From assembly GCA_964019695.1 (NCBI GenBank), contig OZ026515.1, forward strand, positions 75,755,144 through 75,819,143: DNA of 64,000 bases, in the 5' to 3' direction. Position 1 is the stretch's first letter; every line of letters begins with the position of its first letter. This DNA is from Loripinus fragilis. Its lineage: Eukaryota > Mollusca > Bivalvia > Lucinida > Lucinidae. Below are positions 15,510 through 16,663 of the stretch, in pieces. The notes beneath the pieces were generated by a model. The model saw only the letters and a list, made by a program, of their open reading frames with translations. It made no database searches and was not told where the DNA came from. Position numbers and translations under genes: made by a program.

Positions 15510-16543
15510 CTTCTAGATGGTTGCTATGACATGAGTCCCTCATCAAAAAGCCTTATTCATACTTCAACTACTGCCTTCCAACATTCAATACTAAAAGATT
15601 TTACCTCAATGTCTGATATGGCTGACTTAAGTTACAAATACCAATTGACTAGATGGTTGCTATGACATGAGTCCCTCATCAAACAGCCTACTTCATACTT
15701 CAATTACTGCCTTCCATCATTCAATACTAATAGACTTTACCTCAATGTCTGATATGGGTGACTTAAGTTACAAATACCAATTGACTAGATGGTTGCTATG
15801 ACATGAGTCCCTCATTAAACAGCCTTATTCAAACTTCAACTACTGCCTTCCATCATTCAATACATATATTCTTTACCTTTGATATGGCTGACTTAAATTG
15901 AGAATACCGGTAACTATGATATATGAGTCCCTCATCAAACAGCCTTATTCATACTTCAACAACTTGCCTTCTAACATTCAAAACTAGTAATAGAATTTAC
16001 CTCTATGCCTGATATGGCTGACTTAAGTTGAGAATACCAACTGACTAGATTGTTGCTATGACATGAGTCCCTCATCAAACAGCCTTATTCATACTTCAAC
16101 TTCCGCCTTCCATCATTCAATACTAAAAGACTTTACCTCTATGTCTGATATGGCTGACTTAAGTTGAGAATACCGTTGACTAGATGGATGCTATGACATG
16201 AGTCCCTCATCAAACAGCCTTATCCATACTTCAACTTCTCCCTTCCAACATTCAATACTAATAGTCTTTACCTCTATGTCTGATATGGCTGACTTAAGTT
16301 GAGAATACCAACTGACTAGATGGTTGCTATGACATGAGTCCCTTATCAAAAAGCCTTATTCATACTTCAACTACTGCCTTCCATCATTCAATACTAAAAG
16401 ACTTAACCTCAATGTCTGATATGACCGACTTAAGTTGGGAATACTAAATGACTAATTGGTTGCTATGACATGAGTCCCTCATCAAACAGCCTTATTCATA
16501 CTTCAACTACTGCCTTCCATCATTCAATACTAATAGACTTTAC
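15510..16543 (-). repeat. Tandem array of eight decayed copies of the VARS exon
   Basis: A unit of about 136 bp is repeated; the landmark GAGTCCCTCAT occurs at 15533, 15669, 15804, 15924, 16064, 16200, 16335 and 16472, then at 16610 inside the genuine exon. Read on the minus strand, each unit aligns with exon 16544-16663 from GCAGTA(A/G)(C/T)TGAAG through TTTGATGAGGGACTCAT to the exon end ATATCAGACATTGAG plus the donor GTAAAGTCT. Frameshifts and stops (for example TGA after GTTGAAGTA) make the copies non-coding. Most keep the GAG|GT donor, but their upstream side is purine-rich (ATGGAAGGCAG) instead of a polypyrimidine acceptor. The array lies just downstream of the true exon, so it arose by local tandem duplication of the exon's 3' part plus adjoining intron. 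Confidence 0.85.
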
Positions 16544-16663
16544 CTCAATGTCTGATATAGCTGACTTTAGTTGACAGGACCAGTTGACTAAACGGTTGCT
16601 ACGATATATGAGTCCCTCATCATACAATCTAACAAATGCTTCAGTTACTGCTTTTGATCGTTT
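16544..16663 (-). CDS. VARS: VARS exon d (NWSC/SAISDIE segment)
   Basis: A 120-bp exon (40 codons, phase 0) beginning KRSKAVTEAFVRLYDEGLIY and ending LKSAISDIE. The acceptor is TTTTCAG|AAACGATC and the donor GAG|GTAAAG. VTEAFVRL...LVNWSC...SAISDIEV is the conserved core segment of valyl-tRNA synthetases just before the editing (CP1) domain. It joins in frame to the TMDE end of the exon at 19615-19696. Directly downstream in the intron lie eight decayed tandem copies of this exon. The next exon, expected to open the editing domain, was not found in 1-16543. Confidence 0.93.

What the first reader, a model, noticed from the sequence alone, without database searches (positions are those of the whole stretch)
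15510..16663. Tandem array of pseudo-exons made from a VARS coding exon, abutting the real exon
Eight units of about 136 bp each align with the 3' three quarters of the functional 120-bp exon plus the adjoining intron, including the GAG|GTAAAGT donor. The copies carry stops and frameshifts and lack a polypyrimidine acceptor, while most retain the donor. An exon has thus seeded a minisatellite inside its own intron. Decoy donors next to a constitutive exon could affect splicing, or the array may simply be tolerated. Copy 4 (15924) is shorter and keeps the exon-like ATATATGAG spelling where the others read GACATGAG, hinting at gene conversion or a different origin.
Basis: partly seen in the sequence, partly recalled or inferred. 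Interest (0 to 1): 0.85.

Follow-up and report, generated by a model that had tools for sequence, protein, structure and literature searches.

The report
Dead exon copies forming tandem array
In what looks like a mollusc gene for valyl-tRNA synthetase, a whole coding exon has been copied about eight times in a row into the intron just after it; the copies are broken and lack the real exon's splice acceptor, so they are most likely harmless debris, though most keep splice-donor sequences beside the real one.

Summary
The gene is on the minus strand: real exon 16663-16544 (120 bp, phase 0, PF00133), continuing three upstream valyl-tRNA synthetase exons. Directly after its donor come seven complete units (16543-15605) and one truncated unit (15604-15513). 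Correction: the units hold the WHOLE exon (nt 2-120) plus only 18 nt of intron, not just its 3' three quarters. The copy begins within about 2 nt of the acceptor and omits its tract and AG, so each copy was probably a donor-only pseudo-exon from the start. Differences from the exon show no third-codon-position excess, and 8 of 8 units have stops in the exon frame. Seven of eight share a 2-nt deletion; the short unit (16000-15877) lacks it but shares a derived base with the rest, so it looks like an old branch rather than a fresh conversion from the exon. Seven of seven decoy donors keep GT, but donor positions vary about as much as the rest: no sign of selection. Best reading: a neutral pseudogenic exon that became a minisatellite. 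Effects on splicing are untested. The genome search did not complete, so spread elsewhere and copy-number variation are unknown.

The parts
16544..16663 (-). Real exon of the valyl-tRNA synthetase gene, 120 bp, phase 0, KRSKAVTEAFVRLYDEGLIYRSNRLVNWSCQLKSAISDIE
   Evidence: PF00133 E=1.3e-11; 1gax E=1.2e-6; NCBIfam valine--tRNA ligase model positions 145-187; molluscan VARS tblastn
16664..16677 (-). Real acceptor TTTCCTCTTTTCAG; 16 of 20 bases upstream of its CAG are pyrimidines, the highest of 119 AG sites scanned at 15500-16700
16538..16546 (-). Real donor GAG|GTAAAG
16520..16522 (-). TGA in frame with the exon, nt 22-24 of the intron; any use of a downstream decoy donor would include it
   Evidence: VKSISIE*
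16408..16543 (-). u1: 18 nt intron-like + exon-like copy; followed by decoy donor GAG|GTTAAG
16272..16407 (-). u2; followed by decoy donor GAG|GTAAAG
16137..16271 (-). u3; only one stop in the exon frame; followed by decoy donor GAG|GTAAAG
16001..16136 (-). u4; followed by decoy donor GAG|GTAAAT
15877..16000 (-). u5: short divergent unit (124 bp), keeps ATATAT (no 2-nt deletion), gaps of 12 and 6 nt; followed by decoy donor AAG|GTAAAG
   Evidence: 82-87% identical to the other units
15741..15876 (-). u6; followed by decoy donor GAG|GTAAAG
15605..15740 (-). u7; followed by decoy donor GAG|GTAAAA
15513..15604 (-). u8: truncated unit, ends inside the exon-like part, no donor
19615..19695 (-). Preceding VARS exon (KGERIYEQMKKLGFSLDWNRTAFTMDE), donor GAG|GTAAGT
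47500..47663 (-). VARS exon (GCDHAGIATQ...); boundaries approximate
58654..58790 (-). VARS exon with PPPNVTGTLHLGHAL; boundaries approximate

Best explanation
A DNA-level tandem duplication in a molluscan VARS gene copied the whole 120-bp exon together with the first 18 nt of the following intron (about 138 bp), but not the acceptor just upstream. Shown: anatomy, homology, stops, absence of the exon's acceptor, kept donors. Inferred: because the copy came without its acceptor it was not spliced in as an exon, so it was invisible to selection, decayed, and was later multiplied to eight units by unequal exchange or replication slippage. Order inferred from shared changes: duplication; CG-to-CA change; split of the u5 lineage; 2-nt deletion and frameshift in the ancestor of the other seven; amplification. 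The array is tolerated because the real donor is the first one after the real acceptor.
For: The exon hits only the array within the window (blastn, E up to 0.05), over nt 2-120 in 4 of 8 units. In-register 5' match 28/43, 0 of 20,000 shuffles. Molluscan VARS proteins hit both the 5' and the 3' part of several units, in different frames. Consensus mismatches by codon position 6:10:9 over 118 sites, i.e. no third-position excess. The real acceptor has 16 of 20 pyrimidines; the best AG in the array has 14 and reads AAG, the best TAG or CAG has 13. Units are 82-95% alike and 71-77% like the exon. Donor positions deviate 3/42 (+1..+6) and 0/19 (-3..-1, two gapped u5 positions not counted), overall 62/1025. 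Units carry F at exon residue 14, as do the two best exon hits P0001 and P0002, while the window exon has Y, so the units look older than that change. Stops in the exon frame in 8 of 8 units.
Against: The 5' quarter is more diverged than the rest (28/43 against 65/75, Fisher p = 0.009 for the consensus; p 0.004-0.083 for single units), which a single uniform neutral history does not predict; exchange between exon and array, or faster change of this part of the exon, could explain it. Similarity does not fall with distance in the array (r = -0.29, permutation p = 0.93), so simple neighbour-by-neighbour slippage is not visible. The tree of the units is unresolved (0 of 6 inner branches supported). 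u3 is nearly open: its deletions sum to three bases and it has one stop only.
Confidence: 0.8

Rival explanations
1. The array acts on splicing: the true donor is fairly weak, and seven downstream decoys compete for U1. Use of a decoy extends the exon into an in-frame TGA and sends the mRNA to nonsense-mediated decay, so the array tunes VARS output.
For: 7 of 7 decoys keep GT; by a recalled human-like weight matrix 5 of 7 score at or above the true donor (6.56) and two lower (2.53, 6.14); the donors of exons 58.7k and 19.6k score higher (8.83, 11.57), the candidate of exon 47.5k lower (3.70, boundary uncertain); in-frame TGA at intron nt 22-24.
Against: Donor positions are kept about as well as the rest of the unit; from 62/1025 one expects all seven GTs kept with a chance of about 0.42. 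No transcript evidence was available.
Confidence: 0.08
2. The first copy was once a working alternative (mutually exclusive) exon that lost its acceptor and frame, and the dead exon was then amplified.
For: u5 reads open from residue 11 to its end with gaps of 12 and 6 nt; u3 has one stop only in the exon frame.
Against: No trace of the exon's acceptor: the copy begins at exon nt ~1-2 and is preceded by the 5' end of the intron; no third-codon-position excess. Spacing of 18 nt between copies is too short for an intron (general knowledge).
Confidence: 0.08
3. Exon and array exchange sequence by gene conversion, keeping the 3' three quarters alike and possibly passing F/Y between array and exon.
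For: 5' versus 3' divergence differs, p = 0.009; P0001 (97% identity over 81% of the window's exon ORF with flanks) has F at residue 14 where the window exon has Y and the units have F.
Against: Longest exact exon-consensus run is 15 nt, p = 0.49 against random placement of the same mismatches; P0002, whose reading after the donor differs from the array's start, also has F, so F may be ancestral; u5's exon-like spelling carries the other units' CA.
Confidence: 0.15
4. An unrelated satellite or mobile repeat that happens to resemble the exon.
For: Tandem repeats are common in this window (34 TRF rows).
Against: Full-length, in-register homology including the donor; the units match residues rare among the listed hits (Q31 in 5 of 120, F14 in 4 of 120); no copy elsewhere in the 64 kb at E up to 0.05.
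Confidence: 0.02

Closest known systems
Pseudogenic exons (PsiE; Morais & Harrison 2009, PMC2718932; abstract and passages seen)
   Same: Intragenic copy of an exon, disabled by stops and frameshifts, with the pattern of decaying sequence; reported for 0.4-1.0% of genes in four mammals. The authors mention that initial disablement of splice signals is another route.
   Different: Here about eight tandem copies with an 18-nt spacer form a minisatellite directly behind the parent exon; the word 'tandem' has 0 occurrences in the main text of that paper.
Tandem exon duplications / mutually exclusive exons (PMC9013439; passages seen)
   Same: Tandem copies of one exon inside one gene.
   Different: Mutually exclusive exons are complete, spliced exons; these copies have no acceptor of their own. 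That survey dropped targets overlapping annotated interspersed repeats or low-complexity DNA, so arrays like this one may be filtered out.
Intronic minisatellites (e.g. CeRep25B near alternative exons in C. elegans, PMC4039745; passages seen)
   Same: Tandem repeats next to exons in introns.
   Different: CeRep25B has a 24-base unit, and no exon origin is mentioned in the passages seen; here the unit is a whole coding exon plus donor.

Membership tests
Pseudogenic exon (PsiE) | Homologous to an exon of the same gene and lying in its neighbourhood | tested here: met
Pseudogenic exon (PsiE) | Disabled by frameshift or premature stop | tested here: met
   2-nt deletion in 7 of 8 units; stops in the exon frame in 8 of 8, 1 to 6 each
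Minisatellite-type tandem repeat | Head-to-tail copies of a unit of tens of bp or more | tested here: met
   period 136, 8.3 copies, 85% matches (unit longer than most minisatellites, general knowledge)
Minisatellite-type tandem repeat | Copy-number variation between individuals | not testable with these tools
   no population data; the genome search did not complete
Mutually exclusive exon cluster | Each copy has its own acceptor and donor | tested here: not met
   the exon's acceptor is absent from the units; best TAG/CAG in the array has 13 of 20 pyrimidines against 16 for the real one, a crude count; donors follow 7 of 8 units
Mutually exclusive exon cluster | Each copy open in the exon's frame | tested here: not met
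   stops in 8 of 8 units
Genome-wide satellite family | Copies at other loci | tested here: inconclusive
   none elsewhere in the 64-kb window at E up to 0.05; rest of genome not searchable (all unanswered)

The most novel reading that the evidence does not exclude
Exon-seeded minisatellites may be an overlooked class: exon copies that include the donor but not the acceptor escape exon definition, are invisible to selection, and can expand beside their parent. In this gene the decoy donors could have become a copy-number-dependent dampener of VARS through decoy use and decay of the mRNA.
Probability: 0.08. Interest if true: 0.6.

Novelty: new variant of a known kind. Interest (0 to 1): 0.33.

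Why it matters
It is a clear natural example of a coding exon turned into a tandem repeat inside its own gene, with a partly readable order of events. It provides a natural test of donor choice: one rather weak true donor followed within about 1 kb by seven near-identical decoys. If such arrays are common they could be missed by exon-duplication surveys that mask repeats.

Tried and rejected
Unrelated satellite: rejected (full-length exon homology). u5 as a fresh conversion from the exon: rejected (shares the CA of the other units). Neighbour-wise slippage pattern: not seen. Conversion tract by longest exact run: not seen. Resolved unit tree: not obtained. Search for a unit ORF in the protein database (44-aa plus-strand ORF): no candidate, weak evidence because such short ORFs may not be called. 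Downstream VARS exons at 1-15,500: none found with recalled ValRS motifs (one four-residue word LTGR at 6825, minus strand, taken as chance) or with nine molluscan VARS proteins (lowest E in that stretch 0.41, for residues 240-274), so the next intron exceeds about 15 kb or the gene ends here. Unit DNA against the plasmid collection: no match. Literature: (listings of titles and abstract starts; searches gave 0 papers) showed no exon-seeded intronic array like this one among the rows listed; passages of PMC7969005 did not bear on it; the library is open-access only.

Full report
Setting. The gene is on the minus strand. Four stop-free reading frames match valine--tRNA ligase models in consecutive order (NF004349 positions 21-62, 55-117, 117-144, 145-187), and nine molluscan VARS proteins hit the same four places. 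A search with the joined exons (120 of 7991 hits listed) returned bivalves at 71-78% identity (Mytilus coruscus 78%, Mercenaria 77%, Saccostrea and Mya 76%, Dreissena 75%, Pecten 71%), an abalone at 77% and many arthropods and others at 70-75%; the two lowest E-values belong to a louse (51%) and a scorpion (70%). A bivalve or other mollusc is therefore likely but not proven; the species is not identified. The fourth exon, 16663-16544, is 120 bp, begins and ends between codons, and has the acceptor TTTCCTCTTTTCAG and the donor GAG|GTAAAG.

The array. From the donor onward lie units of 136, 136, 135, 136, 124, 136 and 136 bp and a truncated one of 92 bp. TRF gives period 136 and 8.3 copies. Units are 82-95% identical to each other and 71-77% identical to the exon over gap-free columns.

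What the unit is. The ungapped alignment runs on to the exon's 5' end: 28 of 43 sites in register for the unit consensus, against 12.25 +/- 2.86 expected and a maximum of 24 in 20,000 shuffles. Blastn extends to exon nt 2 in 4 of 8 units. Tested singly by free local alignment, four units reach p < 0.01 and four do not. As a caution, ungapped matches of 25-26 of 43 also occur outside the array in the window (19639 minus, 56693 plus), so the register is what carries the evidence. Independent support: molluscan VARS proteins hit the 5' part of several units in one frame and the 3' part in another. The typical unit is thus 118 nt of exon (120 less a 2-nt deletion) plus 18 nt of intron. The acceptor region upstream of the real exon is not in the unit.

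Decay. Each of the 8 units has at least one stop in the exon frame (5, 4, 1, 4, 6, 5, 5 and 2 for u1-u8), and all three frames through the array hold many. u3 is the least broken: its deletions sum to three bases and it has one stop. Consensus differences by codon position are 5:5:5 in the 5' part and 1:5:4 in the 3' part, with no third-position excess. Seven units lack two bases in ATATAT; u5 has them. u5 also shares the CA (exon CG) of the others, so the simplest order is duplication, CG to CA, u5 split, 2-nt deletion, amplification. The unit tree is otherwise a star with no supported branch, and similarity does not follow order in the array.

Splice signals. The seven decoy donors read GAG|GTTAAG, GAG|GTAAAG, GAG|GTAAAG, GAG|GTAAAT, AAG|GTAAAG, GAG|GTAAAG and GAG|GTAAAA. 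With a recalled human-like matrix five of seven equal or exceed the true donor. Deviation from consensus is 3/42 at +1..+6, 0/19 at -3..-1 and 62/1025 overall: neither clearly preserved nor purged. The real acceptor has 16 of 20 pyrimidines; array AG sites reach 14 (an AAG) and 13 (a TAG), by a crude count that does not exclude weak acceptors. Reading past the true donor meets TGA after seven codons, so decoy use would give a truncated frame and probably nonsense-mediated decay (inference).

Relatives. Of 203 single-exon hits 120 are listed; 112 of these hold SAISDIE, and P0001 alone continues past it with the window's reading (VKSISIE, then its end); P0002 does not. P0001 is thus probably a very near relative or the same species. 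The shared reading covers the first 24 nt after the donor at peptide level only, which is consistent with the array but does not prove it. P0001, P0002 and the units have F at residue 14; the window exon has Y. The copies therefore look older than this change in the window's exon, or exon and array have exchanged sequence. A higher divergence of the 5' quarter (p = 0.009) leaves exchange open; the longest-run test gives no sign of it (p = 0.49).

Verdict. A pseudogenic exon that became a minisatellite. Both ingredients are known: pseudogenic exons are associated with 0.4-1.0% of genes in four mammals (PMC2718932, abstract), and about 10% of animal genes were reported to contain tandemly duplicated exons (PMC9013439, passage citing a 2002 study). 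The combination, an acceptor-less whole-exon copy amplified next to its parent, was not seen in the listings of eight searches of an open-access library. It is a neat variant, probably without function.

Noticed in passing
20613-27826 (-): 7.2-kb minisatellite of a 56-bp unit (about 128 copies) in a VARS intron; minus-strand frames stay open for about 40-60 aa per stretch.
   Followed up: no
18859-19343 and 43296-43828: Two short arrays (188- and 192-bp units) in different introns, related to each other at about 65-74% identity over longer stretches and up to 88% over 34 nt; no Pfam match for one ORF tested from each. Origin unknown.
   Followed up: partly
17907-18600 (-): ORF fragments that read like a reverse transcriptase to the eye (recalled motif), about 1.2 kb upstream of the array exon; no Pfam hit at E 0.1 for the two pieces tested.
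   Followed up: partly
28325-28396 (-): tRNA-like match to Rfam (34.4 bits, the only match at gathering score), in a stretch whose peptide-like reading recurs at several places in the window; probably a tRNA-derived SINE (inference).
   Followed up: no
15403-15487: A 22-bp repeat (3.9 copies) lies just beyond the truncated distal end of the array.
   Followed up: no
1-15512: No further VARS exon found, so the intron that holds the array exceeds about 15 kb or the gene is interrupted.
   Followed up: partly
16137-16271 (-): u3 is nearly open in the exon frame (one TAG; ECWKGEVEVWIRLFDEGLMS*HPSSQRYSQLKSAISDIE), unlike its neighbours.
   Followed up: partly
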